From a virus, in IMG/VR virus record IMGVR_UViG_3300047163_000047, positions 1 to 57,585 of that record: 57,585 bases of DNA; one strand, given 5' to 3'. Position 1 is the stretch's first letter; the number at the start of each line of letters is the position of its first letter. The position numbers were made by a program, and so were the translations under genes. The notes under the pieces were generated by a model. The model saw only the letters and a program-made list of their open reading frames with translations, had not been told where the DNA came from and did not search any database. Of the stretch, positions 1,104 to 54,226 are shown in pieces.

Positions 1104-1228
1104 CTTTGTTCTTTCTGTTGTTTATCCAACAACTCATTCTTCGCCTTAAGCTGATCTTTCAGAATAGTGATGAGGGCTGCACGAATTTCGTTTTCTTCAT
1201 CCTTTGCTTTAGGTAAGTATCCCTTCAC
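1100..1228 (-). CDS. small hypothetical protein, 42 aa
   Basis: The reading frame opens with a GTG at 1226-1228 that lies inside 25-bp repeat copy A and ends in an ATGA overlap with the next gene. The product (starting VKGYLPKAKDEENEIRAAL) is charged and helical. No ATG is available upstream in frame before the HNH gene's stop. The first residues VKGYLP are encoded by the repeat itself. The start is uncertain. Confidence 0.45.
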   Translation of the reverse strand: MKGYLPKAKDEENEIRAALITILKDQLKAKNELLDKQQKEQR

Positions 1229-1236
1229 GCCCCGTA
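1212..1236 (-). repeat. 25-bp repeat, copy A (minus orientation)
   Basis: Copy A starts GGTAAGTATCCC and ends GCCCCGTA on the plus strand. It is an exact 25/25 inverted match to copy B at 2447-2471. The pair brackets an HNH endonuclease gene and a short plus-strand gene group. On the minus strand it overlaps the start of the small gene 1100-1228. Confidence 0.9.
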
Positions 1237-1296
1237 TGAGAGGTGAAAAGTTGGTTGATTTTGGTTCATAAAAATAGTTGAAAATAAATGTTGAAA

Positions 1297-1782
1297 TTAC
1301 TGTACATGTTTCCAGCTTTTTCGATTGAAAACCGACATAATGTTACCCTGCGATTGCCGATATTTTAACATCATGGCGCACATGCCCTCCCACGATCCAG
1401 CTACGCTCCGAATTTCTCGCACGGCTTCGTCGGTAAGGGCGGAGTTTTTGCATTTTTCTCCTCGCAGTGGGTTTCCGCGATTTCTCCTTACCCTGTCCTC
1501 GACATTTTCCGCCGTCGTTCCGGCTCGGAGGTGGTGCGGATTAACACATTTTCTGTTGTCGCAAGAATGCAGCGCATTTAATCCTTCCAAATTTTTTCCA
1601 GCCAGCATAAGGCTTAGGCGGTGTGCGCCGAATTGCCGTCCCTTGCGATCCGACGTGGCTCCCAACGTCATGACTCCGTATCCATTGGAGCCAAGGGCGC
1701 CAGCCCATGGCCAGCACTCATTTGCCGTGCCAACCTTGACTTTAGACCAGAAATTTCTCTTCTCTTTTTCGGTTATTTTCAT
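1297..1782 (-). CDS. HNH endonuclease (homing type)
   Basis: The product resembles free-standing phage HNH_3 homing endonucleases. It has an N-terminal ECWPWAGALGSNGYG element, then the His-rich core (AHRLSLMLAG, LHSCDNRKCVNPHHLRAGT, ENVEDRVRRNRG) and a C-terminal helix-turn-helix-like DNA-binding tail. I place the start at the ATG at 1780-1782 (MKITEKEK) rather than 15 bases upstream, because the longer start would sit on the promoter's -10 element. Such enzymes cut intron-less or cassette-less alleles to spread themselves. The gene lies between inverted repeat copies A and B and may mobilise that segment, which is inference. The upstream promoter leaves only 6 bases before the ATG, implying a leaderless mRNA. 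Confidence 0.85.
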   Translation of the reverse strand: MKITEKEKRNFWSKVKVGTANECWPWAGALGSNGYGVMTLGATSDRKGRQFGAHRLSLMLAGKNLEGLNALHSCDNRKCVNPHHLRAGTTAENVEDRVRRNRGNPLRGEKCKNSALTDEAVREIRSVAGSWEGMCAMMLKYRQSQGNIMSVFNRKSWKHVQ

Positions 1783-1788
1783 AAAAAT

Positions 1789-1817
1789 AAAGTACAAGAT
1801 TTTCTTGACACTGTCAA
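1789..1817 (-). promoter_or_regulatory. promoter of the HNH gene
   Basis: On the minus strand TTGACA (1817-1812) is followed by a 17-base spacer and TACTTT (1794-1789). The -35 lies within a 17-bp palindrome, so a dimeric regulator could occlude it. Confidence 0.6.
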
Positions 1818-1819
1818 GA
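1803..1819. promoter_or_regulatory. 17-bp palindrome, candidate operator between divergent genes
   Basis: The sequence TCTTGACACTGTCAAGA is a perfect odd-centred palindrome between the leftward HNH gene and the rightward pair 1883-2295. Each arm contains a TTGACA-like -35, one per strand, so a single bound dimer could control both directions. The helix-turn-helix protein encoded at 2113-2295 is the obvious candidate ligand. Confidence 0.6.
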
Positions 1820-1882
1820 GTTATGGTAAGTTTTTCTTAACAAAGAGAGGCCAAACCCCCTCTCGAAAACGAAAGAAAAAAT

Positions 1883-2116
1883 ATGAGTGAATACATGTTC
1901 GGAGTCGGTGGCGGAAGCAAACTGACGGGCAAAGAAATCAAACGCAGGAAGGCGGCAGCTGAAAAACACGATGCCACCTTCGTTTATGGCGAAGACCCCG
2001 GCAAAACGGATGGATATGGCAACCAACTCTACCGCTGGTGGTTTGCTGGTCAAAATCGCGGCGAACCTTTTGACAATCGCCTTCGCCGGGATGTAGAGGC
2101 GGAACTCGCCAAATGA
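1883..2116 (+). CDS. hypothetical protein, 77 aa (plus strand)
   Basis: This charged protein (MSEYMFGVGGGSKLTGKEIK at the start) is on the strand opposite to nearly the whole genome. It overlaps the following HTH gene by 4 bases (ATGA). It is transcribed away from the HNH gene from the shared palindromic promoter region. The composition suggests a small soluble, possibly regulator-associated protein; no domain is recognised. Confidence 0.7.
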   Translation: MSEYMFGVGGGSKLTGKEIKRRKAAAEKHDATFVYGEDPGKTDGYGNQLYRWWFAGQNRGEPFDNRLRRDVEAELAK

Positions 2117-2295
2117 CAGCCGCGGAATACAGAGCGGCTCGCGTTGATCGCGGGCCGCAGGTAGCCGTAGCGGCCAAGCTCGGCGTGGACTACCGAACGA
2201 TCCAGCGCCGCGAAGCTGGGACGATTCCCGTGACGCACGAAGCAGAGTTAGCGATTTTGTCGCTCCCCAAACTGAGGAAAAAACGTGAAATATAA
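2113..2295 (+). CDS. helix-turn-helix DNA-binding protein
   Basis: The 60-residue product contains an XRE/Cro-like helix-turn-helix: VAVAAKLGVDYRTIQRREAG at about residues 17-36, where the second helix carries the recognition pattern. It is small enough to be a minimal Cro-like protein. It is translationally coupled to the gene before it and probably binds the palindrome at 1803-1819 (inference), controlling the divergent HNH gene and its own operon. Confidence 0.75.
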   Translation: MTAAEYRAARVDRGPQVAVAAKLGVDYRTIQRREAGTIPVTHEAELAILSLPKLRKKREI

Positions 2296-2389
2296 TTTCA
2301 AATCCTTCGACAAGGAATTTCCCGATGACGCTTCCCTTTTCGCTTCGATGGTTTCGCGGGTGCCAAGCACGCTTTCGCAAGCAGCTTAA
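2285..2389 (+). CDS. possible small protein, 34 aa
   Basis: A GTG at 2285 opens a frame overlapping the end of the HTH gene and ends at TAA 2387-2389. The translation begins VKYNFKSFDKEFPDDASLFA. It would be the third gene of the plus-strand group. There is no domain and only coupling as evidence. Confidence 0.3.
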   Translation: MKYNFKSFDKEFPDDASLFASMVSRVPSTLSQAA

Positions 2390-2412
2390 AAAACCGGGAT
2401 TTATTTGTGTCC

Positions 2413-2547
2413 ATGAAATCATACTATTCAAAATCGGATTCGTTTTTACGGGGCGTGAAGGGATACTTACCTTGCTCTATCGTGACGGCGCAGGGCTTCT
2501 TTTATCGTCTCGTTCAAAGCCCACTCATGATTTGTCTGGAAGCATGA
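2413..2547 (+). CDS. doubtful ORF across repeat copy B
   Basis: This 44-residue plus-strand ORF reads through repeat B (encoding LRGVKGYLP) and overlaps the 3' end of the minus-strand gene 2467-2691. It may be the last gene of the plus-strand group or an accident. I list it because it defines the right border of the A/B segment. Confidence 0.2.
   Translation: MKSYYSKSDSFLRGVKGYLPCSIVTAQGFFYRLVQSPLMICLEA
2447..2471 (+). repeat. 25-bp repeat, copy B (plus orientation)
   Basis: This is the exact inverted partner of copy A (25/25). On the minus strand its GGTAA contains the stop codon of the gene 2467-2691, so the boundary falls at a gene end. Confidence 0.9.
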
Positions 2548-2691
2548 AACGAGATTACTTTTATGCTCAATCCAAGACGCCTTGGCTTCACCAAGCTTTT
2601 CATTATAAATTTTTCCAAGCGTTTTCTCCTCTACTGGTAAAGGGGATTTATTACTAGGCGGATACCCAATGTCTTCTGGATTAATTGTCAT
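2467..2691 (-). CDS. hypothetical protein, 74 aa
   Basis: I choose the ATG at 2689-2691 (MTINPEDIGYPPSNKSPL) because AAGGA lies 5 bases upstream. An in-frame ATG at 2859 would give 130 residues but would overlap the upstream gene by 38 bases and read through repeat copy C (encoding RVAKGYLP). The protein is polar and helical in its second half. Its stop codon is part of repeat copy B. The function is unknown. Confidence 0.6.
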   Translation of the reverse strand: MTINPEDIGYPPSNKSPLPVEEKTLGKIYNEKLGEAKASWIEHKSNLVSCFQTNHEWALNETIKEALRRHDRAR

Positions 2692-2713
2692 TGGATCCTT
2701 GGTTAAAAGAGAT

Positions 2714-2738
2714 GGTAAGTATCCCTTGGCGACACGTA
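2714..2738 (-). repeat. 25-bp repeat, copy C (minus orientation)
   Basis: It differs from copies A and B only near the centre and end (TTGGCGACACGTA). It lies 22 bases upstream of the chosen start of the gene 2467-2691. No plus-oriented partner was found to its right, so it is a solitary copy. Confidence 0.85.
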
Positions 2739-2821
2739 GTTCGCTCTTGCGAGGCAATTTTTCCGGCGCAGAACGTGAAAGCAATTTATGCAAACCATTT
2801 GGATGCGGGATGTGGATTTTT

Positions 2822-3037
2822 TCACAGAACTTGAACCTTTCTGGAGCGAATGGCCTCAAGGAATTGAGTCGCTAACTTTTCGGAATCGCCTCGGCATGGG
2901 GCATCCAAGTACATCTCTTCCAGCGTATCCAGATTGCGAAGAACAAAGGTTCCGTAACCTCTGGCATAGCGGATTGTCCATCCTGACTTTTTATGTAGTT
3001 TTGTGGGTTTCATATATCCTGTATTGGACGAAGCCAT
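2822..3037 (-). CDS. hypothetical protein, 71 aa
   Basis: The product (MASSNTGYMKPTKLHKKSGW at the start) reads like a small alpha/beta protein that could bind nucleic acid (KKSGWTIRYARGYGTFVLRN). The start overlaps the stop of the glycosyltransferase gene (TAATG). No family was recognised. Confidence 0.7.
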   Translation of the reverse strand: MASSNTGYMKPTKLHKKSGWTIRYARGYGTFVLRNLDTLEEMYLDAPCRGDSEKLATQFLEAIRSRKVQVL

Positions 3038-3801
3038 TAGGCGAAAATCTCCTGCGGATGATAGCTCTTTGTCTCGAATTTCAGAAGCTTGTGCTCGCGA
3101 GGAACGTAATCTCCCAAGTGTTTCAAGCGGTAATCAAGTGTTTGTGCTCCCATATGTAGCACCAGGTCATCAGGAGACCAGCGTGAGCCATCTGTTGCGG
3201 GCCCATGCTTCGGAATATGCGCTCCATGCATGGAATTGAAGTATTTTGCCGTCACTACCTTTATTTTGGCGTCTGTGTGATTGACGAGATCGAAAAGTTT
3301 GCTTTGCAATTCAGTCGTGCCGTAATTGAAGCCGACTGTTGCGTAAAATTCGTAGTAGCTCTCGCATGGGCTGAGTAAGACGTTGAGCGCCTCCTGCTCA
3401 TCTCGGAATCGAGTATCCGAGAATGCCTCAGTCAGCTTTTCCATCAGCTCGATGGTTCGCTCGTTCGCTTTCATCAGAAAGCTATCGCTCTGGATGACAT
3501 TGCAATCGTTGGCGAATATTCCGTCAAAGTGATTGTCGGCGTAGTGGGCTATGTCCTTCTCAGGATTGGTCAGAAGAACATCTGTTCCGGTAAACCAGAG
3601 CCAGTCATATTCCGGCATCTTCTGAAGAGCCCTGAGCCATGCGGCGGGCCTTTCCCATGCCATTTTGCGGCTCTCATTCTCGTGATGAAGAAAGAATTCG
3701 CATTCGTATCCCCATTTTTTGGCATAAGCCAGCTTGCCGGGGTAAGTGATCTGAGCCAGGGACTCGTAAGCTCGGCTCCAGCCGGTGAGCATATGGATCA
3801 T
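3037..3801 (-). CDS. glycosyltransferase-like protein (first of two paralogs)
   Basis: The 254-residue protein begins MIHMLTGWSRAYESLAQITY and contains the pattern of GT34-like galactosyl/mannosyl transferases: KWGYECEFF near residue 28, WERPAAWLRAL, then YDWLWFTGTDVLLTNP with a DxD-like nucleotide-sugar site. It closely parallels the protein encoded at 24135-24845, which starts MIHLLTGWSKEYEPLADITF. The start at 3799-3801 is supported by GAGG 5 bases upstream, an ATGA overlap and that paralog; an upstream ATG at 3855 is rejected. It probably transfers a sugar to a virion or host surface component. Confidence 0.8.
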   Translation of the reverse strand: MIHMLTGWSRAYESLAQITYPGKLAYAKKWGYECEFFLHHENESRKMAWERPAAWLRALQKMPEYDWLWFTGTDVLLTNPEKDIAHYADNHFDGIFANDCNVIQSDSFLMKANERTIELMEKLTEAFSDTRFRDEQEALNVLLSPCESYYEFYATVGFNYGTTELQSKLFDLVNHTDAKIKVVTAKYFNSMHGAHIPKHGPATDGSRWSPDDLVLHMGAQTLDYRLKHLGDYVPREHKLLKFETKSYHPQEIFA

Positions 3802-3998
3802 AATGGCCTCACTGTTGCGATTATGGAATCGCTCATGATTCCATAAATAGCCCATGCGCCATTATGTGGAATAACTTTAGCTTTTCCGCATTTTCGGAAT
3901 TTTTTAGCCAGTATACAAGCATTGCGATACCCGCTCATTCCAATCGCGAATTCATCTCGAATATGTCTGCCGAGGCTTTCGATGCTAACCATGTTCAT
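3798..3998 (-). CDS. hypothetical protein, 66 aa
   Basis: The start at 3996-3998 (MNMVSIESLGRHIRDEFAIG) has GGAG about 7 bases upstream and an ATGA overlap with one of the two candidate frames before it. It ends in an ATGA overlap with the glycosyltransferase. The sequence is basic and helical; no domain is recognised. Confidence 0.65.
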   Translation of the reverse strand: MNMVSIESLGRHIRDEFAIGMSGYRNACILAKKFRKCGKAKVIPHNGAWAIYGIMSDSIIATVRPL

Positions 3999-4230
3999 CT
4001 CGATCTCCCTTGAATGCCTTCCCCTGCCTGATGATTCGGAGCCTGAGCATTTTTCTCTGCGCAGGGCTGAGCTTGTGCAGGATTTTTGGCGTATTGCCAA
4101 CCAGACAATCCACTAGCTGCCCACGGGATAAATCCAAGTTGAAGCAGAGCAAATCGATCCGCCGCAGCGTTGTTCTCAAGGTACCGATTGAGAATACCAC
4201 TTCCCTGCTTTTTGGCCTTCCTCGCTGCAT
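3985..4230 (-). CDS. ribbon-helix-helix-like protein (frame uncertain)
   Basis: The 81-residue translation contains a ribbon-helix-helix-like stretch (TLRTTLRRIDLLCFNLDLSR, then GQLVDCLVGN), followed by LSPAQRKMLRLRIIRQ. A second frame over the same bases (3995-4234, starting MNAARKAKKQGSGILNRYLE, 79 residues) has an ATGA overlap at its end and starts just after the upstream stop, which fits local gene spacing better. I cannot decide between them; both may be translated. The 12-bp palindrome variant CTCTGCGCAGGG lies inside at 4055-4066. Confidence 0.45.
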   Translation of the reverse strand: MQRGRPKSREVVFSIGTLRTTLRRIDLLCFNLDLSRGQLVDCLVGNTPKILHKLSPAQRKMLRLRIIRQGKAFKGDRDEHG

Positions 4231-4236
4231 TCATGA

Positions 4237-4548
4237 TTATGACTTCTCTCTTGTTGGAAACCAAGTGTAAATGATCTCGTCGCCCTTTTTCCATTCCCGG
4301 AAAGTGAATGGGCCGAGGTAGCCTTCCTTGACCAGATCGGCATCCTCCACAATCTCTTGCTTGAGCTGGCTTAAGAGTCCCATGGCGTAAAAAGTTTTGG
4401 CATCGAACTGTCTTTCAGGATCAGTAATGAAACGAGAAAACGCCGACTCCTGCATGTGGATGGATTTGGCCAAAAGACTTCCAGCTCCGCGACCGATGAA
4501 GTCGCGGAATCCTGTGATGAAAACCTTAAGCATTTCAAGATCGTCCAT
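4237..4548 (-). CDS. possible helix-turn-helix protein, 103 aa
   Basis: The start is the ATG at 4546-4548 (MDDLEMLKVFITGFRDFIGR), 7 bases after the upstream stop; the longer frame upstream is out of place over the preceding gene. The middle section (SLLAKSIHMQESAFSRFITD) looks like a Cro/CI-type helix-turn-helix. It may be a small DNA-binding regulator. Confidence 0.6.
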   Translation of the reverse strand: MDDLEMLKVFITGFRDFIGRGAGSLLAKSIHMQESAFSRFITDPERQFDAKTFYAMGLLSQLKQEIVEDADLVKEGYLGPFTFREWKKGDEIIYTWFPTREKS

Positions 4549-4555
4549 GTTGATT

Positions 4556-4939
4556 TCATTCGAGCAAAACAATTGAGCGCTTGATCCGGTCGATCTGCAT
4601 GATGCGCGGGATTCGCCCCGAGGCCTGCATCTGCGCGATCCATTTCTCGGTATCGCCCACAACTTGATCCGAGGGGAGTAGTTCGCATAGCGTGCTGATT
4701 TCCTGAAGTTTTATGTTCGGGAAAGCTTTCTTAAGCATCCGAATCCTGATCTCCTGGGAAAGAATCAGCATCCGCATCGCCAGACGAATCTGCTCCTCGC
4801 GCAGAGGCTTGTGCTTGGAGAAAACGGAATTTAGCTCATCATTCAGTTTTTCGTGAGACAGAGTTTTCGCGATCTTGGAAAAGTCCTCGATACTGCGCTG
4901 CTCGTCATCGGCAAACTGCTTGAGTTCGTCGCGGTTCAT
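4556..4939 (-). CDS. hypothetical helical protein, 127 aa
   Basis: This charged all-helical protein (MNRDELKQFADDEQRSIEDF at the start) has no recognised domain. It overlaps the preceding gene by ATGA. It belongs to the leftward run of small unknown genes downstream of the promoter at 6397-6424. Confidence 0.7.
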   Translation of the reverse strand: MNRDELKQFADDEQRSIEDFSKIAKTLSHEKLNDELNSVFSKHKPLREEQIRLAMRMLILSQEIRIRMLKKAFPNIKLQEISTLCELLPSDQVVGDTEKWIAQMQASGRIPRIMQIDRIKRSIVLLE

Positions 4940-5166
4940 TTGAATGCTCCCATGTCGAATGCGTTGCCAGCTTCCTTGCGGGACAACTTTCCGCAGACAC
5001 CTTTGAACTGGCTTGAGTAATAATGCACGAACCTTTCGCGATGGCTTTTGGCCCTCTTCTGACTCTTGATATCGATTGTTGTGCCCGAACGGCCCCGCGA
5101 GCGCGGTAATTCATCTTTATCGGTGAGCTGCGTCCACTTGTCGCGAATCCATTTCGCGATGTTCAC
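4936..5166 (-). CDS. hypothetical basic protein, 76 aa
   Basis: The start is GTG at 5164-5166 in a GTGA overlap with the previous gene. The product is strongly basic (RSRGRSGTTIDIKSQKRAKS in the middle) and might bind nucleic acid. The family is unknown. Confidence 0.65.
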   Translation of the reverse strand: MNIAKWIRDKWTQLTDKDELPRSRGRSGTTIDIKSQKRAKSHRERFVHYYSSQFKGVCGKLSRKEAGNAFDMGAFK

Positions 5167-5843
5167 TTGTTGCCTCCGAAGTACCCGAAGCGACGAGCCT
5201 GACGACGCACGACATTAAGACGAGCCCCTAGGTCTTGCCGGAATTGGGGCGTGAACTTGACTTTGGGGTCTTGCTGCTCAAAGAAGCTAATGAGGTAATC
5301 GGCGTGCTCCAGGGCGTCGGCCAACGTGACGATATCGGTCTTCTCTTCCTTTGGTGCCGGAGGCGCGTCGTCTGAGCCTTCTTTCTTGGCCTTCGTCTTA
5401 CCAGCCTTCTTTTGCTTCGGGAATTTGGCCTTCTTAATTTCAGTCACCTCCTTGACCGTAAGTTCTTCCTTTTCGGCCTGATTCAGGATCGCCTCACGAT
5501 CCCCCGGCTCCAAGGCGGCCACGGCCATGTGATGATTGAAGGTGAGCTTTGCGTGACGGCGTGAGGGCGGAAACTCATTACAGACCCATGTAGCGTTGCT
5601 TACCGTTTTTTCCGTGTACTGAAGGGGCTCGATGGCTTGGGCAAACTTCTCTGCGTAGGTGCGCTCGCCGAAAATAAAGAGATCGCCCAAGGCCCAGAGA
5701 CCATCAGCAATGACGGCTCCGTAAGACCGGACGGCCTCCTGATACGATTCAAAGGGGGTCTTGGGATCGATGGAGAGGCCCTTGTTTCCCGGCAGTAATT
5801 GGATGTAGTCGGTGTAGGGGCGGACAATGGTTAGCTTGCTCAT
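5163..5843 (-). CDS. partition/replication-like hypothetical protein, 226 aa
   Basis: The N-terminal half (LGDLFIFGERTYAEKFAQAI, TVSNATWVCNEFPPSRRHAK, NHHMAVAALEP) resembles a helical domain seen in plasmid and phage proteins related to ParB-type or replication accessory proteins. A Lys/Ala-rich linker (about residues 140-175) leads to a short helical C-terminus. It may bind DNA; this is inference from the pattern. It overlaps its neighbours by ATGA and GTGA. Confidence 0.65.
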   Translation of the reverse strand: MSKLTIVRPYTDYIQLLPGNKGLSIDPKTPFESYQEAVRSYGAVIADGLWALGDLFIFGERTYAEKFAQAIEPLQYTEKTVSNATWVCNEFPPSRRHAKLTFNHHMAVAALEPGDREAILNQAEKEELTVKEVTEIKKAKFPKQKKAGKTKAKKEGSDDAPPAPKEEKTDIVTLADALEHADYLISFFEQQDPKVKFTPQFRQDLGARLNVVRRQARRFGYFGGNK

Positions 5844-6335: not shown

Positions 6336-6344
6336 AACTATTTT

Positions 6345-6356: not shown

Positions 6357-6396
6357 ATTACGCCTGCTTGTTTAGTTCCCCTATTCATTGCGACTA

Positions 6397-6424: not shown

Positions 6425-6427
6425 CGA

Positions 6428-7766: not shown

Positions 7767-8318
7767 TTATTTGCCCCACTGAGCCGCCATTGCAGCGGCA
7801 ATGCCTTTGTACGTCCTCGATCTGATTTTCCAGCGATCCGGCCCCGGTGGGCACATGTGCACCTTGGCCTCGCGCCCTTCGACAATGTTCGTCGGCACGA
7901 GCTTGGGTAGATTCTTCAGCCAAAGGCACGTTGCCTTGGTTTCGCCGTGGCCAAACTGCCAGGGTTGAATTATCTGATCGGGTTTTCGATAGCGAGACGA
8001 CATGATGCTGATCGGGTTTTCGATAGCGATACGAGGAATATTTATCTCGACAAGCTCCATGAAGAATCGAATGGCATCACATTGTTCTTTAATTTTTTCT
8101 TTGAACCATCTTGCGCCAAAGACAGCGAGGTGTGTGCATGGTGGATGAGCGATCATCATATCCCATTCCTGACGGAAAACGGCAGAGCGAATGTCCTGCT
8201 TGTAATGATTCCCTGGGATTTCAGTGTCGATCAAATCGCAAGACCAAGCATCGTGACCGCAGGCCTTAAAGGCGTCCCGCACCACTCCGCTAAATTCGCA
8301 GGCAACAAGGACTTTCAC
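7767..8318 (-). CDS. DNA cytosine C5-methyltransferase-like protein
   Basis: The start is the GTG at 8316-8318 in a GTGA overlap, giving 183 residues that begin MKVLVACEFSGVVRDAFKAC (motif I). Motif IV is IAHPPCTHLAVFGARWF, with the catalytic Cys in PPC, and motif VI is IAIENP. The protein is short and lacks a large target-recognition domain, as is typical of a compact phage family. It likely methylates cytosine in phage DNA against host restriction; activity is not provable here. Confidence 0.8.
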   Translation of the reverse strand: MKVLVACEFSGVVRDAFKACGHDAWSCDLIDTEIPGNHYKQDIRSAVFRQEWDMMIAHPPCTHLAVFGARWFKEKIKEQCDAIRFFMELVEINIPRIAIENPISIMSSRYRKPDQIIQPWQFGHGETKATCLWLKNLPKLVPTNIVEGREAKVHMCPPGPDRWKIRSRTYKGIAAAMAAQWGK

Positions 8319-8554
8319 AGCGGTAAATTCTCCGTGTAATTCTGAAAGTTCTTCGCATTCCGCCCATCGGCAAGGACTGGCTCTACACCGCGCTCTTGGC
8401 AGGCGTGGATAAAGCCGTGCATCCATTCCGATGAGGCTCGACTGTCGGCTGGGTAGCGGCAGTAGGCTCGCTTTTGATTTTTTGCAGTGCGTCCGGCTTC
8501 GAGGCCTTGTTCTCGTGCCTGCTTGATGGAGGTTAGCTCATTGATGGAGGTCAT
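8315..8554 (-). CDS. ribosome modulation factor-like (Rmf/CrpP) protein
   Basis: The 79-residue product has the pattern of the Rmf/CrpP family: a helix ending QGLEAGRTAKNQKRAYCRYP, then SSEWMHGFIHACQE, matching the GxxAGxxG, CPY and WxxGFxxA signature. Rmf binds ribosomes and promotes their dimerisation; CrpP has other proposed roles. What a phage copy does is unknown. It overlaps both neighbours by 4 bases. Confidence 0.65.
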   Translation of the reverse strand: MTSINELTSIKQAREQGLEAGRTAKNQKRAYCRYPADSRASSEWMHGFIHACQERGVEPVLADGRNAKNFQNYTENLPL

Positions 8555-8739
8555 GTGAATGGGAGTTCGATGGTTTTAAATTTGGAGTGTTTTTCTTTTT
8601 TCAATCCTCTTCCGGGCTTTATCGCTTTAGGCATAGGGGGGGGGCTGGTGGAATCTGTAGCGTGATCGGATTGGCGAAGCAGGGGTAATCCGACGCGATC
8701 AAGCTTGTGGCCTATTTTGCAGGGAACGAATTTGGGCAT
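8551..8739 (-). CDS. small basic protein with a C9 homopolymer, 62 aa
   Basis: The frame (MPKFVPCKIGHKLDRVGLPL at the start) overlaps the end of the replisome organiser by 41 bases, and a second ATG at 8632-8634 (MPKAIKPGRG) could be the true start. Between them is a run of nine C on the coding strand (8636-8644). A slip in that run would break the longer form but not the shorter one. The function is unknown. Confidence 0.5.
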   Translation of the reverse strand: MPKFVPCKIGHKLDRVGLPLLRQSDHATDSTSPPPMPKAIKPGRGLKKEKHSKFKTIELPFT

Positions 8740-9679
8740 ATTTCTCCGGTTCGATGTAGTTTGAAATTCCGCCAGTGATGTAGTTGATCTTGGATTCGGG
8801 TACTCGCATGGCCATGTAAGCCATGACCTTTACTCGATCCGCAGATTCAGCAATAGCTTCTTTAAGCAAACGCTGAAACCGTGGTAAATCGTCATCCCCT
8901 GATTTAACTGCCATAGCGAGATCATCGATGTGAATGCGCCAGGAATTATCCTCGACCGTTTTTCCCTGCGAAGGGATTTGTCCATTCTTTAGGAAAGACC
9001 CATTGCGAGCGATCCAAGCGGAAGCTGCCATTTTCCATTTTTTGAGTGGCTTGTTCTTTCCCTGCACCCATCCGTTAGCTTCATAGTGATACCAGAATTT
9101 CTCTGCTTCTGCTTCTGAGGCTTTTAAGGATTGAAAATGAAGCTTAACTTGAGTGAGAGAAGATGCCTTTCTGCCATCTGCATCTGCATCTGCATCTGCA
9201 TCTGCATCTGCATCTGCATCTGCATCTGCATCTGCATCTGCATCTGCATCTGCATTGGCTCTACTTTGGTCTACATTTTCTACAGGAATCGTAACACCAA
9301 GCTTTTCAGCGCGTTCCCGTTGTCTGCGGTCATTGATATAGCGTCGTTTTGATTCCAAAATGCTCTCTTCATCGCGAACAGCGCGGTACTTGGCGTAATT
9401 CAAAAGCCGCCAGCCCCCTTCAATCTCTTCAATGCGCTTTCCTTCGTGATCTTTGGTGCGACTGTGCTCATCTGGCTCCTGAAAGCGCTGGAGAGCAGCC
9501 TGACACGACGCTAGGGGTACTCGGGCCTTGTGCGCTAGACCGGGCACGGAGGCCCAGATTCGGCCATGTTTATCGGCCATGGCCAACATGCAAATCCAAA
9601 CTAGACGACAGTGATCGTCTTCTTGCCAGATGGTGGATTCCGTGATGGAGGAAAATAGCTTCGTGAATGTCATGCTCAT
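8699..9679 (-). CDS. replisome organiser / replication protein O-like
   Basis: The 326-residue protein has the N-terminal winged-helix region of phage replisome organisers (TKLFSSITESTIWQEDDHCR, LVWICMLAMADKHGRIWASV, LLNYAKYRAVRDEE). It then has an Ala-Asp repeat from a 13-unit hexamer tract (about residues 143-168), and a DnaD-like helical C-terminus (KFWYHYEANGW, KKWKMAASAWIAR). It should recruit the DnaB helicase to the origin, and the helicase gene lies just downstream. The start follows repeat copy D by 7 bases and has no obvious Shine-Dalgarno. A palindrome variant (CCCTGCGAAGGG) is at 8964-8975. Confidence 0.8.
   Translation of the reverse strand: MSMTFTKLFSSITESTIWQEDDHCRLVWICMLAMADKHGRIWASVPGLAHKARVPLASCQAALQRFQEPDEHSRTKDHEGKRIEEIEGGWRLLNYAKYRAVRDEESILESKRRYINDRRQRERAEKLGVTIPVENVDQSRANADADADADADADADADADADADADADGRKASSLTQVKLHFQSLKASEAEAEKFWYHYEANGWVQGKNKPLKKWKMAASAWIARNGSFLKNGQIPSQGKTVEDNSWRIHIDDLAMAVKSGDDDLPRFQRLLKEAIAESADRVKVMAYMAMRVPESKINYITGGISNYIEPEKYAQIRSLQNRPQA
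9175..9252 (-). repeat. hexamer microsatellite, 13 perfect copies
   Basis: CATCTG (GCAGAT on the coding strand) repeats 13 times without error and encodes an Ala-Asp linker in the replisome organiser. Because the unit is 6 bases, gain or loss of copies keeps the frame and changes only linker length. Confidence 0.97.
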
Positions 9680-9686
9680 AAATTTA

Positions 9687-9711
9687 GGTGACTATCCCTT
9701 CACGACACGTA
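9687..9711 (-). repeat. 25-bp repeat, copy D (minus orientation)
   Basis: With copy E (10219-10243) it forms an imperfect inverted repeat that extends to 34 bases (9680-9713; three mismatches). The pair brackets the methyltransferase gene. The copy supplies the last codons and stop of that gene and ends 7 bases before the ATG of the replisome organiser. Confidence 0.9.
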
Positions 9712-10231
9712 ACAGGGTTTTGGTTTCGGGTTTCCAGAAGGCGCACCAGTGCGTTTTCTGCGCTTTGCCGCTCGGATGCCCGAACAGCGGTTTGTTTATC
9801 GTGCATTTCAGGACTTCCGAAAGCGGAACGTCGCATTCGTTCCATTTGAAAATCAGGACACCGCCAGATTTCAGAACTCGGAAGCATTCACTGAATCCTC
9901 GCGAAAGATCGTCGCGCCACGTTTCCTTTTCGAGGCGTCCGTAGCTTTGGGCCATGAAGCTATTCGCTCCTAGAAACAGATGCGGCGGGTCAAACACGAC
10001 CATCTGGAAAGATTCGTCGGGGTATTCCATTTCGCGGAAGTCGTGAACACGGTCCGGCAGGCATCGGCGCGTGCGAGCATCCTTGCCACTGCCTACAATC
10101 TTGTCAGGCATTACGCGGCAGTCTGCAAACAATACATTGGGGTTTTCCTTATCGAAGCAAAATTGCCGACCGCCGCAGCAGGCGTCCAATATCGGAGGTA
10201 AGTCTATATTTTTTTCGTTACGTGTCGTCAT
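9692..10231 (-). CDS. SAM-dependent methyltransferase in an inverted-repeat cassette
   Basis: The 179-residue protein (MTTRNEKNIDLPPILDACCG) has motif I-like ILDACCGGRQF and motif IV-like VVFDPPHLF, characteristic of N6-adenine or N4-cytosine DNA methyltransferases; the C-terminal part includes FRVLKSGGVLIFKWNE. The ATG at 10229-10231 is chosen because AGGAG sits 8 bases upstream. Both that ribosome-binding site and the first codons are formed by repeat copy E, and the last codons (LLRVVKG) by copy D. The gene therefore fits exactly into the cassette. It probably modifies phage DNA. Confidence 0.8.
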   Translation of the reverse strand: MTTRNEKNIDLPPILDACCGGRQFCFDKENPNVLFADCRVMPDKIVGSGKDARTRRCLPDRVHDFREMEYPDESFQMVVFDPPHLFLGANSFMAQSYGRLEKETWRDDLSRGFSECFRVLKSGGVLIFKWNECDVPLSEVLKCTINKPLFGHPSGKAQKTHWCAFWKPETKTLLRVVKG

Positions 10232-10243
10232 GGGATAGTCTCC
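10219..10243 (+). repeat. 25-bp repeat, copy E (plus orientation)
   Basis: Inverted partner of copy D. It shares with D alone the flank AAATTTAGG and GACTATCCC, so the two are closer to each other than to the other copies. Confidence 0.9.
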
Positions 10244-10283
10244 TAAATTTAATGTAGACAATTCAATCTACGGACTCAAGAAA

Positions 10284-49663: not shown

Positions 49664-49670
49664 TTTTCCT

Positions 49671-49682
49671 CCCTGCGCAGGG
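49671..49682. promoter_or_regulatory. 12-bp palindrome CCCTGCGCAGGG between genes
   Basis: Exact copy in the gap between the Lar-like gene and the structural gene 49685-50041. On the minus strand its AGGG merges with GGAGG to form the ribosome-binding site of the Lar-like gene, as at 6345-6356. Confidence 0.75.
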
Positions 49683-49684
49683 CC

Positions 49685-50041
49685 TTACTGTTGCGTCCCA
49701 ACTCCGCCGCCTTGCATGGACACGGCTGGTGCGGGTGCTTGACCTTGAGGCGCTCCTGAGCCGGGGCCCTTTGGGGATGGCATGACCTTCCAAACAGGAC
49801 CGATGCTTCCGTTGGGGTTGGTGAAGTGCAGCGCGATGGTTCCATTGCCCTGATCGACGCCGATCATGGCCGGGGGCTTGTTCCCAGGTTGAGCCATCTG
49901 CGGAAGCCCTGGTGGCGGTGGCATACCTCCAGGCATTGGAGTTGGAGCCATGGGTCGAGCGTTGGGAATGGGCTGAAGCGGTGATGGGGCTTGCGCTGGA
50001 TTCATTCCGACCAAGCTCTGAGGCATCGTTGGGGCCAGCAT
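49685..50041 (-). CDS. Pro/Gly-rich structural protein, 118 aa
   Basis: Low-complexity Pro/Met/Gly composition (PTPMPGGMPPPPGLPQMAQP) with a central ordered patch (GTIALHFTNPNGSIGPVWKV). Probably a small head or packaging-linked protein. Confidence 0.55.
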   Translation of the reverse strand: MLAPTMPQSLVGMNPAQAPSPLQPIPNARPMAPTPMPGGMPPPPGLPQMAQPGNKPPAMIGVDQGNGTIALHFTNPNGSIGPVWKVMPSPKGPGSGAPQGQAPAPAVSMQGGGVGTQQ

Positions 50042-50042
50042 A

Positions 50043-50504
50043 TTACCTCTTCAGCGCAACGCCTGCGCTTTTGGGGCTGATGGAGCCGCGACCTTTGCTC
50101 ATTCCCTTGCTGTCGAAGCCGATCTTGGAATCGAGGTCTTTCTTTTCATCACTGTCTTCGCCTTCCTCGGGCTCCACCATTGTCACATCACTGATGTCCT
50201 GGACTTCGAGTTCGCATCGATTGCTATCGTAGCGCGGGGCTCCTGCGCCTTTCTTGACCACGCTTTGCACACGAGCGCGGACGGTGAACTCGTAGACCTC
50301 ATCGGGCTGCGCATCTTTCAGTCCTGCGGCTTCGATATGCTTGTTCGTCAGCGTGAAGCTGGGGTAATGAATCTTTTCTTGCTCGGCCTTGTCGCGATCC
50401 TCGGGGTCGGTCGCCATTACTGCAATTCCCAATCCGCCGTCGAGGTCTTTCTTTTTGATTCCAAGATTGCCCGTTGCCATGACTGAGCTTTGAGCATCAG
50501 CCAT
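50043..50504 (-). CDS. hypothetical head-module protein, 153 aa
   Basis: Acidic protein with a beta-rich middle (YEFTVRARVQSVVKKGAGAP) and an Asp/Glu/Lys tail. It overlaps the upstream gene by 8 bases. Its position between terminase and portal suggests a role in head completion or DNA retention; no family recognised. Confidence 0.55.
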   Translation of the reverse strand: MADAQSSVMATGNLGIKKKDLDGGLGIAVMATDPEDRDKAEQEKIHYPSFTLTNKHIEAAGLKDAQPDEVYEFTVRARVQSVVKKGAGAPRYDSNRCELEVQDISDVTMVEPEEGEDSDEKKDLDSKIGFDSKGMSKGRGSISPKSAGVALKR

Positions 50505-50727
50505 TTTTCGTCAAGCCCATAATCTCCGCGAAAGTGGCCTGTCCCATCTCGACCATCAGAAACCATTGGCCCTGACGCTGCTCATAAACTCCAATGCGCT
50601 GCGAGTCAATGTCACTTAAAGCTCGCATCGGATTTGTTGATTTCGGCTTGGGATGAGCAAGGGCATAGGTCAGGAATCGATCTATGTCCCTGCGCAGGGT
50701 TGCTGAGTTGTCGAGATTGACTGGCAT
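50497..50727 (-). CDS. hypothetical protein downstream of the GDG repeat, 76 aa
   Basis: The start at 50725-50727 (MPVNLDNSATLRRDIDRFLT) is the first sensible ATG after the repeat-rich gene. The upstream in-frame ORF of Met/Ala repeats is a shadow of the repeat tract. An exact palindrome at 50688-50699 encodes TLRRD. The family is unknown. Confidence 0.6.
   Translation of the reverse strand: MPVNLDNSATLRRDIDRFLTYALAHPKPKSTNPMRALSDIDSQRIGVYEQRQGQWFLMVEMGQATFAEIMGLTKNG
50688..50699. repeat. 12-bp palindrome CCCTGCGCAGGG
   Basis: Exact copy inside the gene 50497-50727, in a different reading frame from the virion-gene copies. Confidence 0.85.
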
Positions 50728-50731
50728 AAAA

Positions 50732-51028
50732 TCAAGCGCCAGCGCCAGCGCCATCGCCAGCGCCATCGCCATAGCCATAGCCATCGCCATCGCCATAATA
50801 GCCATAGCCAGCGCCATCGCCATAATAGCCATAGCCATAATAGCCATAGCCATAGCCAGCGCCATCGCCATCGCCAGCGCCATCGCCAGCGCCAGCGCCA
50901 GCGCCATAGCCATCGCCATCGCCATAGCCATCGCCAGCGCCATTGCCATAGCCATAGCCAGCGCCATCGCCAGCGCCATCGCCATAGCCAGCGTGATTAT
51001 GATGCCTAGTCTTCAATAAATTTGACAT
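50732..51028 (-). CDS. Gly/Tyr/Asp/Ala repeat protein, 98 aa
   Basis: Starts MSNLLKTRHHNHAGYGDGAG with GGAGG 6 bases upstream, overlapping the previous gene by 23 bases. The rest is GDG/GYG/GAG repeats from a 43-unit hexamer tract. The alternating Gly with variable D/Y/A (one N) looks like a flexible or beta-sheet repeat, perhaps a structural decoration. The N-terminal HxxH-like start may be a second domain. Confidence 0.6.
   Translation of the reverse strand: MSNLLKTRHHNHAGYGDGAGDGAGYGYGNGAGDGYGDGDGYGAGAGAGDGAGDGDGAGYGYGYYGYGYYGDGAGYGYYGDGDGYGYGDGAGDGAGAGA
50735..50992 (-). repeat. hexamer microsatellite, about 43 units
   Basis: Units GGC-NAT or GGC-GCT on the coding strand; the second codon varies among GAT, TAT, GCT and once AAT. 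The frame is kept by every unit. The tract is almost pure across 258 bases. Confidence 0.95.
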
Positions 51029-51371
51029 AGGTAGCCTCCGCTTCACTTGTTGTAGGGATAAATTCGATGGCGTTGGTCAGGTAGACCTCGCCCGTTTTAT
51101 TCAAGCGCCCTCTCTTGATGCCATTGTTTGCCACGGCAGAGAGCGATAGTCCGCCTCCTGTCCATTTCCACAGGCGCAATGCGTTCTTGAGCTTCACTTC
51201 CATGCCGTTGACGCTCTCTACGTCTCCAATGTGGACTCCGGCGCTGTATGTGCGGATCAGGCAGCGTCGTCCGAGCATGGGGTGCGGAGGGTTGATCTGG
51301 GTTGATTGGTTCCCACCGAATAAGACAGCGAGTTGTTTGGCTTCCTTGATTGTGAGGTCGTCGATGTTCAT
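51006..51371 (-). CDS. DUF6948-like protein, 121 aa
   Basis: The middle and C-terminal parts (HPMLGRRCLIRTYSAGVHIG, GGGLSLSAVANNGIKRGRLN, TGEVYLTNAIEFIPTTSEA) match a domain family repeatedly seen in phages (DUF6948), beta-rich with a conserved AN.GI motif; the function is unknown. It is the first gene after promoter P1 and its ATG is only 7 bases from the -10 element, so the mRNA would start at or next to the start codon, a leaderless arrangement. Confidence 0.75.
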   Translation of the reverse strand: MNIDDLTIKEAKQLAVLFGGNQSTQINPPHPMLGRRCLIRTYSAGVHIGDVESVNGMEVKLKNALRLWKWTGGGLSLSAVANNGIKRGRLNKTGEVYLTNAIEFIPTTSEAEATYVKFIED

Positions 51372-51378
51372 GTCTAAA

Positions 51379-51406
51379 CTATTACGTTTTCCCGTTATCC
51401 AGTCAA
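51379..51406 (-). promoter_or_regulatory. minus-strand promoter P1
   Basis: TTGACT (51406-51401), a 16-base spacer with GGATAACG, TAATAG (51384-51379). It stands directly after the large terminase stop and starts the 51.4-42.4 kb run. Block GAGATAGCTC upstream is shared with P3. Confidence 0.8.
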
Positions 51407-51409
51407 GAG

Positions 51410-53071
51410 CTATCTCACTACCGAGTAATTCGTCGGCTTGGGCCGCTTCCCGTACATATCGTTTTTCTTAATGCTCGCGCTGACGGATTTCTGAACGAGT
51501 CTGCCAACTGGCGGATTGCTCTTGGCATCGCCGATCTTGTGCATTTTGAAGACGTTGTGGATCGAGTAGCGGAATACGTCCGCGATGTGATCGATGTTGT
51601 CAGCGAGCGATCCCTTGACCGGCTCTGCATTGTCGAGGCCAAATCCCGCTTCCCCTCGCGCCGGGTATCTGTACTTTCCTGAGCACGCCGCAACGATAAG
51701 CGGACAGCACTCCTCATCAATCTTTATCATCGGGTTGCCATCAGGATCAAATTCTCCCAGCGCTCGGTTAACTAGGGCGATGCTGGGCTGGTTCTGAATG
51801 ATGCGGTATCCAGGCGCGATGCCGTGGCTTTGGAGCACTTGGAAGTAGCTGCGCTTATTCTTTTCGATTCCCATACCAGTGACGTTGCGGCCTGATGGAT
51901 CAGCATAGTCTTTGATACCGGAACAAATCGCCCGATCATTCCAGAACGGAAACATATCGCTTGTGAGTTTAATGGCCGCTTCGCATTGCCGCTCTACGTC
52001 GCTACCTTCGATGTATTGTTCGGCCATGAAGTGCAGGTATTCAAAATTATAGGGCCCTCGATCTCCGTAAAAAGTCTTTGAGAAATAAGCCGCCCAACAT
52101 GTCGCATTGAACACGCCGAAGTCCCAAGTGCGGATGAGATAGGCTCCGGTCGGCCAAGGCATATCCGGCTCTTTGTGCTTTGCGAGATTGAATCGGTAGA
52201 AGACGGGATTGCCGGGGTGGGCCTCACTGTATTGGCCTTCGACCATTCGGGCGTACATCGCTGGATTATTCTCATAGCTGCGCTTGAGAGCTTCAAGGTA
52301 GCTAAGTCGTGGCGGGTTGGCTGTGGGATCACCTGGATCAAGGTTCTGCGCATTATCTGCCGTCTTGAGATGCCAGAACTCGTAGTCGGGGTATTTGCCT
52401 TCCTTGATCTTCTCTGTTTCAATTTCCGCAATCCAATGCGTCGGCCCTGGGGGATTAGTTTCAACAATGCAGTTTCGGTCAGCGACATGCTGATCGAAAG
52501 CATCCTTGGCTCGCAAACATTGCAAGGCCATGTCGAAATCCGCCCGCAGGAGCATGTCCGCTTCGATGAGGATGAGCATGGTACATTCCAAGCCTCGAAG
52601 CGTGTTCTCGGAAATCTTTTCATCCTTGATGCCGGTGAACTCAATCTTGGAGCAAAACCGATCTCCCGTTGTCCTGATCCATTGCTGGATTTCGCTTTTA
52701 CGTGGCCCGCGCTTCAGGAACTCCTGCATTTTCTGCCATGCGTAGTAGCTTGGGATTCGCACCTTTGTTCCGCCATCCCATTTCTTAAACAGGCTCGTGT
52801 CATCCATAGCCTCTTCGTAACCGTGCTTAATGTAGGTATCGTTGAATGTCCTGATTGAGGTACTGGCCTGACTCTCTTTTGTTTTGCGGAGTACAATGAT
52901 CCGCGCTCCTGGTATCCAGTGGCCGTGCTTGATGGCGTCTGTCGCTGCGCTCGTGGTCTTGGAACTTCCCCGGCCCCCGATGAGGAACCTAACGTAAGCG
53001 TGGGATTGGTGGAACTGCTTGATGCTTTCCGGGGGCTTGTACCAACTATCCAGTCCTTCCTCTGGTTCCAT
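51410..53071 (-). CDS. terL: terminase large subunit, 553 aa
   Basis: The N-terminal ATPase domain has Walker A GGRGSSKTT (residues 32-40) and a Walker B-like strand TMLILIEADM (about 164-173, with Glu169 and Asp172). The C-terminal nuclease domain carries RTWDFG with Asp317 and later acidic residues (EFDPDGNPM, SLADNIDHIADVF). It translocates and cuts DNA during packaging. The small subunit is the gene 54620-55213. Confidence 0.92.
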   Translation of the reverse strand: MEPEEGLDSWYKPPESIKQFHQSHAYVRFLIGGRGSSKTTSAATDAIKHGHWIPGARIIVLRKTKESQASTSIRTFNDTYIKHGYEEAMDDTSLFKKWDGGTKVRIPSYYAWQKMQEFLKRGPRKSEIQQWIRTTGDRFCSKIEFTGIKDEKISENTLRGLECTMLILIEADMLLRADFDMALQCLRAKDAFDQHVADRNCIVETNPPGPTHWIAEIETEKIKEGKYPDYEFWHLKTADNAQNLDPGDPTANPPRLSYLEALKRSYENNPAMYARMVEGQYSEAHPGNPVFYRFNLAKHKEPDMPWPTGAYLIRTWDFGVFNATCWAAYFSKTFYGDRGPYNFEYLHFMAEQYIEGSDVERQCEAAIKLTSDMFPFWNDRAICSGIKDYADPSGRNVTGMGIEKNKRSYFQVLQSHGIAPGYRIIQNQPSIALVNRALGEFDPDGNPMIKIDEECCPLIVAACSGKYRYPARGEAGFGLDNAEPVKGSLADNIDHIADVFRYSIHNVFKMHKIGDAKSNPPVGRLVQKSVSASIKKNDMYGKRPKPTNYSVVR

Positions 53072-53077
53072 GATTTG

Positions 53078-53251
53078 TCAGCATAGCGATTCTTGAGTTG
53101 AATAGCCAGTCCCCATCTGCTTACTCAGAACCTCTGCAAGCTTCTTGGGCAGCTTTGAGATCACGATGCGCTGGCCGTAGGTTATGTCGTAGAAGCCTGC
53201 TTCCGGCTCCCTTACGATATTCTTGATGAAATCTACCGCAGGTATGTTCAT
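53078..53251 (-). CDS. small hypothetical protein, 57 aa
   Basis: I choose the ATG at 53249-53251 (MNIPAVDFIKNIVREPEAGF) because it has an ATGA overlap with the gene upstream, although two ATGs further upstream are possible. A small alpha/beta protein. The function is unknown. Confidence 0.6.
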   Translation of the reverse strand: MNIPAVDFIKNIVREPEAGFYDITYGQRIVISKLPKKLAEVLSKQMGTGYSTQESLC

Positions 53252-53421
53252 GCAGTTTGTGGCGCTGGCCATTTGAATTTCTTGGCTGTTTCGCAATTCA
53301 CTCGGAATTCTCTCAGTCGCTTCTCTGCCCTGCGCAGGGAAAACTCCTTACCGTCTTCACTTTTCATGCAGAGCGCCTGCCGCTCCCTGATTCCGATGTA
53401 GATGGTTTCTGGGCGGTTCAT
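53248..53421 (-). CDS. small basic protein, 57 aa
   Basis: Starts MNRPETIYIGIRERQALCMK and overlaps both neighbours by 4 bases. It contains an exact palindrome at 53328-53339 (encoding SLRRA). Lys/Arg-rich and helical; possibly nucleic-acid binding. Confidence 0.6.
   Translation of the reverse strand: MNRPETIYIGIRERQALCMKSEDGKEFSLRRAEKRLREFRVNCETAKKFKWPAPQTA
53328..53339. repeat. 12-bp palindrome CCCTGCGCAGGG
   Basis: Exact copy inside the small gene 53248-53421. Confidence 0.85.
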
Positions 53422-53657
53422 GCTAGCTCTGCTTTCTCGATTGCCTGGATGAGATCATCGATAGTTTTAATTTCACCGATCTGAGCGGGCTCCAGTTCGA
53501 TTGAGAAGGCGTCCTCGATGTCGATGGCGAGCGCGGCCATGTCCAAGCTATCGAAGCCGAGCTTCTCCAAGCGGTAGTCTCGCCCTAGCTCATGCGGGCG
53601 CAGGCCGATAAAGTCCCCGACGATGCGCTTGACCTTGATTTCGATGTCCTCCGGCAT
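53418..53657 (-). CDS. acpP: acyl carrier protein
   Basis: The 79-residue acidic protein has the ACP four-helix pattern: KVKRIVGDFIGLRPHEL, then the phosphopantetheine site GFDSLDMAAL with Ser37, then the helix ALAIDIEDAF and the tail IKTIDDLIQAIEKAEL. ACPs carry growing acyl chains, and host AcpS would load the cofactor. Next to the packaging genes, a phage ACP is unusual; it may donate acyl groups to a phage or host enzyme. Repeat copy F ends 7 bases before its ATG. Confidence 0.88.
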   Translation of the reverse strand: MPEDIEIKVKRIVGDFIGLRPHELGRDYRLEKLGFDSLDMAALAIDIEDAFSIELEPAQIGEIKTIDDLIQAIEKAELA

Positions 53658-53664
53658 TTACTTT

Positions 53665-53689
53665 GGTAAGTATCCCCTCACGACACGTA
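53665..53689 (-). repeat. 25-bp repeat, copy F (minus orientation)
   Basis: One mismatch from the consensus (TATCCCCTCACG). Together with copy G it brackets the gene 53678-54199, overlapping its last codons. Confidence 0.9.
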
Positions 53690-54199
53690 AGAGGCTTCTG
53701 GTTTAAGGTTTCGTTCTATCTCGTAGCGATGGGTGATGTGCCAGCCGCGATAGCCATTCTGCGGGCAGAATTTCTCCGTGAGATATTTGGAGTAATCCTC
53801 GAAGTCGAGCCAGCCAAAGCACCCACAGGCCGTACAGAAGACGAGGCTGTTAAAGCAGGCGATCCAGTGCGTGTGGCGATAAGAGACGACCTTAGGTACA
53901 CCAGGGTCAAGCCAGCGGCCTTCCCACTGAACGCGAGCGAGGCCGTCTTTGGGGGTTCCGGTTCGTGTATTCAACCCACGCTCGCGAGACCATTTCATCC
54001 GGAGCAAGTTCAACCCGTTTTCCATCATCGACGGATTCGTGTACCGCTTGAGATCGAAGCCGATGAGGACTTTGGGCATTTCGTCCAGAGGCTTCCAAGA
54101 AACCACGGCCAAGGCATTCGGCCCGCAGTTGGCTCCCCAAAGCTCGTAAGCTTTCTGTTGTGTCTCGGACGTGAAGTGGATAAATGGAGGTCGCGTCAT
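53678..54199 (-). CDS. cysteine-peptidase-like phage protein, 173 aa
   Basis: The sequence WGANCGPNALAVVS (Cys25) and YRHTHWIACF (His109/His111) looks like a papain-like or C39-type cysteine peptidase pair, with KRYTNPSMMENGLNLL between. The C-terminus is Cys/Trp-rich (CFGWLDFEDYSKYLTEKFCP, GYRGWHITHRYEIERN). The same pattern appears in other phages' uncharacterised proteins I recall. The third catalytic residue cannot be fixed by eye. The gene sits alone between repeat copies F and G, 3 bases from G, and ends in copy F. Confidence 0.6.
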   Translation of the reverse strand: MTRPPFIHFTSETQQKAYELWGANCGPNALAVVSWKPLDEMPKVLIGFDLKRYTNPSMMENGLNLLRMKWSRERGLNTRTGTPKDGLARVQWEGRWLDPGVPKVVSYRHTHWIACFNSLVFCTACGCFGWLDFEDYSKYLTEKFCPQNGYRGWHITHRYEIERNLKPEASYVS

Positions 54200-54201
54200 A
54201 G

Positions 54202-54226
54202 TACGTGTTCAAAAGGGATAGTTACC
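54202..54226 (+). repeat. 25-bp repeat, copy G (plus orientation)
   Basis: The most diverged copy (six mismatches against F). On the minus strand its first bases adjoin the stop codon of the gene 54228-54623. Confidence 0.85.

What the first reader, a model, noticed from the sequence alone, without database searches (positions are those of the whole stretch)
1212..54226. Family of 25-bp repeats that bracket small genes in inverted pairs
Seven copies of one 25-bp sequence (GGTAAGTATCCC at one end, CACGTA at the other in most) occur at 1212, 2447, 2714, 9687, 10219, 53665 and 54202. Minus-oriented copies are at 1212, 2714, 9687 and 53665, plus-oriented at 2447, 10219 and 54202. Three minus/plus pairs enclose 1.26, 0.56 and 0.56 kb. 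Two of the pairs are closer within pair than between pairs (A/B 25/25; D/E share a 34-base extension). The left border of a pair ends just before the start codon of the downstream gene, and the right border sits at or near the stop of the upstream gene. This looks like a cassette system moving single genes (methyltransferase, peptidase-like, HNH group) within phage intergenic sites. The sites are not tied to one reading frame, so selection acts on DNA. An alternative is that they are regulatory or replication-protein sites that happen to flank genes. I do not recall a described element of this kind.
Basis: partly seen in the sequence, partly recalled or inferred. Interest (0 to 1): 0.78.

Follow-up and report, generated by a model that had tools for sequence, protein, structure and literature searches.

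The report
Transposase-less jumping gene cassettes in phage
The repeats are the two ends of small jumping DNA units, relatives of a known bacterial transposon family that lack their own transposase and carry single genes, such as a DNA methyltransferase, into a phage genome.

Summary
The seven 25-bp copies are real: 33-41 bits on their own weight matrix, next window site 6.2. Six form three inward-facing pairs, each flanked by an 8-bp direct repeat: TAAATTTA and TTTACTTT exact, TTGCTTTA/TTGCTCTA 7 of 8. These are terminal inverted repeats (TIRs) with target-site duplications (TSDs). The same class of ends bounds elements with a full IS1595-family transposase in an Acidobacteria MAG and in viral contigs. 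Unit A/B keeps the first 33 residues of such a transposase and splits a reading frame that joins when the unit is left out. The window has no IS1595 DDE domain. D/E (methyltransferase) and F/G (unknown protein) are one-gene cassettes with 0 and 2 bp of interior outside the frame; a related phage (terminase 41%) carries another with a different gene. Best reading: non-autonomous IS1595-type transposons (mobile insertion cassettes, MICs), moved in trans by a transposase not in the window. Shown: TIRs, TSDs, family link, interrupted frame. Inferred: movement in trans, source of the transposase, present activity. Copy C is an orphan end. A new variant of a known kind.

The parts
1212..2471 (.). 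Unit A/B: 1260 bp, ends A (1212-1236) and B (2447-2471) identical 25/25, TSD 1204-1211 / 2472-2479 (7 of 8)
   Evidence: ends 95% over 84 bp and 85% over 106 bp to L006
2285..2380 (+). Remnant of an IS1595-type transposase: first 33 residues
   Evidence: tblastn of the L006 zinc-ribbon ORF, 60.6% identity, E 2.3e-7
2113..2295 (+). Helix-turn-helix gene of unit A/B
   Evidence: 75% identical over 60 aa to the L006 gene, which matches HTH_3
1297..1797 (-). HNH-type endonuclease gene of unit A/B (an ATG lies at 1782)
   Evidence: Pfam zf-His_Me_endon 6.4e-7; PHROG HNH endonuclease families
1100..2691 (-). Reading frame interrupted by unit A/B; 107 codons from an ATG when the unit and one TSD copy are left out
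   Evidence: joined flanks; start codon assigned by eye
2714..2738 (+). Copy C, orphan end
   Evidence: no partner in the weight-matrix scan; 31 bp at 93.5% to the left end of the L036 cassette
9687..10243 (.). Unit D/E: 557 bp, ends D (9687-9711) and E (10219-10243), TSD TAAATTTA at 9679-9686 and 10244-10251
9692..10228 (-). DNA methyltransferase, only gene of D/E; start and stop lie inside the two ends
   Evidence: phrog_954 E 6.9e-63
53665..54226 (.). Unit F/G: 562 bp, ends F (53665-53689) and G (54202-54226), TSD TTTACTTT at 53657-53664 and 54227-54234
53678..54199 (-). 173-aa protein of unknown function, only gene of F/G; its stop lies inside end F
   Evidence: no family hit; one viral relative, L019, 65%

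Best explanation
The 25-mers are the terminal inverted repeats of IS1595-family transposon derivatives. An IS1595-type DDE transposase recognises the ends (GGTRASTATCCC...CGTA), moves the unit and inserts it at an 8-bp, mostly AT-rich target that is duplicated. In this phage three such units have no working transposase: A/B is a deletion derivative that keeps the first 33 residues of the transposase and carries an HNH gene and a helix-turn-helix gene; D/E and F/G are end-to-end single-gene cassettes. They are most likely mobilised in trans by a related transposase from the host chromosome, a prophage or a co-infecting phage. Shown: ends, pairing, TSDs, family link, an interrupted reading frame, absence of the DDE domain from the window. 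Inferred: movement in trans, source of the enzyme, whether the units are still mobile, how the cargo was captured.
For: TSDs of 8, 8 and 7 of 8 bp at the three pairs; at random window places with these spacings 7 or more matches occur at 0.0006. Of 15 end pairs chosen by their ends, 10 have 7 or more, against 4 of 210 mismatched combinations. Same class of ends around full transposases with Zn-ribbon and DDE_Tnp_IS1595 domains: L008, L033 and L040, L031+L037. With TSDs ignored, 44 of 80 viral transposase loci have TATCCC-core ends around the transposase, and 28 of the 44 have a TSD of 7 or more, against 20 of 1892 mismatched combinations. 39 TSD-flanked pairs in 35 loci, 0 in reversed sequence. 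Transposase remnant and shared ends in A/B. A/B splits a frame. Homology of the D/E protein to relatives without such ends stops at residues 166-171 in 10 of 11 loci, the end sequence starting at about residue 172.
Against: No transposase with these ends was found for this phage or its host, so movement is not shown. Clean empty sites for the window's own units were not found; D/E is absent next to the homologue of gene 8699-9679 in 6 of 6 loci, but these are distant (46-62% identity) and synteny upstream was not established. 5 of the 15 end pairs have no TSD (L006, L010, L013, L032, L038), and a sixth, weak pair (L009) was left out of that count. The empty site for L040 matches well on one side only. 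In L029 the D/E homology runs to residue 178.
Confidence: 0.92

Rival explanations
1. The 25-mers are regulatory or replication-protein sites (promoters, operators, stoperators) that sit at gene borders by function.
For: D/E and F/G lie at gene borders; the first codons or stop codons of their genes lie in or next to the ends; many related ends contain TTGACA, which resembles a -35 box (recalled).
Against: TSDs at all three pairs, full transposases between the same ends in relatives, and an interrupted reading frame.
Confidence: 0.02
2. The units spread by homing (HNH nuclease) or by homologous/RecT recombination between short repeats rather than by transposition.
For: A/B carries an HNH endonuclease; L032 has an HNH-like gene (label recalled, no Pfam hit) beside a truncated transposase; the phage has RecT.
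Against: These routes do not make 8-bp target duplications (established knowledge), and no nuclease was recognised in D/E or F/G.
Confidence: 0.04
3. The units are real transposon derivatives but immobile relics, carried only by vertical descent and phage recombination.
For: No transposase in the window; TIRs of F/G match at only 19 of 25; A/B TSD has one mismatch.
Against: Perfect TSDs of D/E and F/G and perfect TIRs of A/B suggest recent insertion; cassettes with different cargo in a related phage (L036).
Confidence: 0.35

Closest known systems
IS1595 family insertion sequences and passenger-gene-bearing ('transporter') ISs (Siguier, Gagnevin, Chandler 2009: not held; seen only as cited in passages of PMC3129680, and PMC12561309)
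   Same: 8-bp TSDs and AT-rich targets as in ISApl4 (passages of PMC12561309); transposase domains in the parent elements; passenger genes
   Different: The window units lack the transposase; their 25-bp ends differ from the 14-bp ISApl4 ends
Mobile insertion cassettes (MIC231 of Bacillus cereus; mic-qnrD; passages of PMC3913671)
   Same: Two inverted repeats, no transposase gene, TSD, cargo gene instead of transposase
   Different: IS1595-type ends rather than IS231-type; in a phage; two of the units are trimmed to one gene from end to end; movement in trans not tested
Integron gene cassettes
   Same: Compact one-gene mobile units; relatives of the D/E methyltransferase on L028 lie near attC-like repeats (attC label recalled)
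   Different: Integron cassettes use attC sites and a tyrosine integrase and make no TSD (recalled)
MITEs
   Same: Non-autonomous, TIRs and TSDs
   Different: The window units are 557-1260 bp and carry genes

Membership tests
IS1595 family (autonomous element) | Transposase with Zn_ribbon_IS1595 and DDE_Tnp_IS1595 domains | tested here: not met
   No DDE match in the window; a 33-residue remnant in A/B. Met in relatives L008, L033, L040
IS1595 family (ends and target) | TIRs of the family and 8-bp TSD | tested here: met
   Same class of ends as transposase-bearing relatives; TSDs 8, 8 and 7 of 8
Mobile insertion cassette | Two inverted repeats, no transposase gene, TSD | tested here: met
   definition from passages of PMC3913671
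Mobile insertion cassette | Cargo gene in place of the transposase | tested here: met
   methyltransferase, 173-aa protein, HNH
Mobile insertion cassette | Mobilised in trans by a cognate transposase | not testable with these tools
   needs a transposition assay; no cognate enzyme found in the window
Regulatory or replication-site family | Sites not organised as inverted pairs flanked by direct repeats | tested here: not met
   6 of 7 copies are in TSD-flanked inverted pairs

The most novel reading that the evidence does not exclude
IS1595-type ends form an open, trans-mobilised gene-cassette system in phages: a transposase supplied by host, prophage or co-infecting phage moves stripped-down one-gene units (methyltransferases, a small membrane protein, TnpB, unknown proteins) between phage genomes, so that phages can gain accessory genes one at a time, much as bacteria do with integron cassettes.
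Probability: 0.4. Interest if true: 0.78.

Novelty: new variant of a known kind. Interest (0 to 1): 0.56.

Why it matters
How phages pick up single accessory genes is mostly explained by homologous or illegitimate recombination (established view, recalled). Here one phage holds three TSD-flanked units with different cargo, two of them trimmed to one gene from end to end, and a related phage holds another. The parent transposons in viral contigs carry, among other things, restriction-modification, methyltransferase and toxin-type genes. If the cassettes are mobilised in trans, this is a direct and testable route by which such genes reach phages without a resident transposase.

Tried and rejected
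Close relatives of the phage: terminase alone (none), terminase profile with L036 (1 locus, the L036 contig itself), megablast of 24 kb against phage records (none). Function of the F/G protein: no Pfam or PHROG hit, no match in phage records, and a single-sequence fold with mean pLDDT 37.6, so no fold search was made; a cysteine-peptidase guess from NCGPNALA and THW motifs is by eye and untested. Partner for copy C: none by weight matrix. The L040 element DNA was not found in named phage records; an 84-bp end query gave 9 Escherichia phage records over query bases 1-46, which lie outside the TIR, taken as chance. 'Closer within pair than between pairs' rejected except for A/B. Genome scan: 11 loci; L008 and L017 have TSD pairs, L009, L010 and L013 short pairs without TSD (L009's second end is weak), six are single ends, some perhaps chance. 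Viral scan: singles L007, L034, L035, L039, L042, L043. In the 15-pair TSD count, L009 was left out (with it 10 of 16), and the L033 second unit was included although one of its ends scored low (12.3). In the transposase survey I dropped L054 and L109 (weak inverted repeats) and five duplicate loci (L051, L052, L066, L082, L085), and added L008, L033, L040 and L118, before counting 41 elements. Cargo tally: 61 of the 75 ORFs listed were scanned, plus 11 from cassettes, remnants and the window. Not seen: 87 of 167 transposase relatives, 21 of 46 Pfam families, 307 of 332 PADLOC families, 69 of 94 PHROG families. That no paper was found on such cassettes in phages rests on ten searches of one open-access library, mostly read as listings; passages were read in PMC12561309, PMC3913671, PMC9229222, PMC3129680, PMC3004938 and PMC2784084. 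The last reports earlier sightings of IS transposase genes in phages. The key IS1595 paper is not held.
Full report
The window is a virus record of 57,585 bases with matches to terminase and, weakly, portal families and to an SU10-type capsid protein, DnaB and RecT, so it is a tailed phage.

Just outside each pair lies the same 8-mer on both sides: TAAATTTA (D/E), TTTACTTT (F/G), and TTGCTTTA/TTGCTCTA with one mismatch (A/B). At random places in the window with the same spacings, 8 of 8 matches occur at 0.000015 and 7 or more at 0.0006. Among 15 end pairs from the window, viral and bacterial contigs, picked by their ends, 10 have 7 or more matching bases; 4 of 210 mismatched combinations do. 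One further weak pair without TSD (L009) was left out. These are target-site duplications (85% A+T over the ten left copies), and the 25-mers are terminal inverted repeats.

The family was found by following the ends. Scans with end patterns gave 2 and then 15 stretches in viral contigs (the 15 include the first two) and 11 in bacterial and archaeal genomes. An Acidobacteria MAG contig (L008) has the same class of ends, a perfect TSD, a 309-aa transposase with both IS1595 domains and a second ORF. Viral contigs L033 and L040 have full transposases between such ends with perfect TSDs, as does the contig of L031+L037. A profile of three transposases found 167 viral relatives, of which the best 80 were fetched. 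With TSDs ignored, 44 of 80 have TATCCC-core inverted ends around the transposase, and 28 of these 44 have a TSD of 7 or more, against 20 of 1892 mismatched combinations (some contigs occur twice). A scan of all loci held for TSD-flanked pairs gave 39 pairs in 35 loci and none in the reversed control; the three window pairs are among them (some contigs counted twice).

Unit A/B is a deletion derivative of such an element. Its ends match L006 at 95% over 84 bp and 85% over 106 bp, its helix-turn-helix gene is 75% identical to that of L006, and 2285-2380 still encodes the first 33 residues of the transposase. It also has an HNH gene. Leaving the unit and one TSD copy out joins the flanks into one open frame, 107 codons from an ATG: A/B landed inside a reading frame.

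D/E and F/G are one-gene cassettes. The methyltransferase frame begins and ends inside the two ends; F/G leaves 2 bp of interior outside the frame. Homology of the D/E protein to viral relatives without such ends (11 loci, 45-91% identity) stops at residues 166-171 in 10 of 11 loci, and the end sequence begins at about residue 172; L029 aligns to residue 178. F/G homology to L019 stops at residue 167, the end sequence beginning at about 171. Other cassettes have the same build: the second L033 unit (N6_N4 methyltransferase, TSD TTTTTTTA, 11 bp outside the frame) and L036 (101 aa, TSD TAATTTAT, 2 bp). A unit on L143/L144 has TSD TTCCCGAT and a TnpB-like gene (named by likeness to L038, which matches OrfB_IS605; no family search was run on L143). 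L017, from a Chloroflexi MAG, has a perfect TSD and two ORFs with no Pfam hit. L036 belongs to a related phage: terminase 41% and portal 41% to the window. Its left end matches orphan copy C over 31 bp at 93.5%.

A probable empty site was seen once, in relatives: L031+L037 has a single ACCTATTA followed by the sequence that follows the second ACCTATTA in L040, whose 1672-bp transposase element lies between two copies. The left side matches only partly, because L040 has extra end sequences there. For the window's own units the evidence is weak: the D/E gene is absent next to the homologue of gene 8699-9679 in 6 of 6 distant loci, one of which (L044) has a methyltransferase relative some 6 kb away.

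The window has no IS1595 DDE domain; 3 of 12 records searched do. So if the units move, they move in trans. That step is inferred. The published precedent is MIC231A1, mobilised by the IS231A transposase (passages of PMC3913671). ISsaga (passages of PMC3129680) describes MICs activated by a cognate transposase elsewhere in the genome, and passenger-bearing 'transporter ISs', citing the IS1595 paper.

Parent elements nearly always carry more than the transposase: 40 of 41 non-redundant TSD-flanked elements (40 viral, and L008) have another ORF of at least 70 aa (mechanical ORFs). Of 72 proteins scanned, Pfam matches include Trypsin_2 4, N6_Mtase 3, N6_N4_Mtase 2, MethyltransfD12 2, HSDR_N 2, DUF3800 2 and one each of MmeI domains, C-5 methylase, NgoFVII and PemK toxin (25 of 46 families shown). 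Of the 25 PADLOC families shown (of 332), 23 are restriction-modification types. A family name is not a tested function.

Verdict: IS1595-derived mobile insertion cassettes in a phage. The kind (passenger-bearing IS1595 elements, MICs) is known; end-to-end one-gene units, several in one phage, are a new variant as far as ten searches of one open-access library can tell.

Noticed in passing
L143 1097-2437, L144 1087-2427, L038 255-1599 (same in L041): TnpB-type genes as the main ORF between IS1595-type ends, two such units per contig; the L143/L144 unit has an 8-bp TSD TTCCCGAT, the L038 unit none.
   Followed up: partly
L028 4562-5998 and 12240-12305; by eye also L020, L023, L024: Relatives of the D/E methyltransferase on viral contigs lie near attC-like repeats, as if carried as integron-type gene cassettes (attC label recalled).
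   Followed up: partly
window 53418-53657 (-): An acyl-carrier-protein-like gene (PP-binding, E 3.4e-11) in a phage, just downstream of unit F/G.
   Followed up: no
window 7767-8426 (-) and 56717-57526 (-): Two further methyltransferase genes: phrog_757 DNA methyltransferase and a Methyltransf_23 protein.
   Followed up: no
L032 9242-11267: End pair without TSD holding a truncated transposase (Zn ribbon only) that overlaps an HNH-like ORF (label recalled; no Pfam hit).
   Followed up: partly
L007 367-424: Solo end with inner sequence like end A of the window, at a junction of two phage ORFs near the contig start; the partner may lie off the contig.
   Followed up: no
L040 1-123: Three end-like sequences within 123 bp (3-27, 66-90, 99-123): an autonomous element inserted next to ends of other units.
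   Followed up: partly
L053-L130 elements: Viral-contig IS1595-type transposons carry restriction-modification, methyltransferase and toxin-type cargo.
   Followed up: partly
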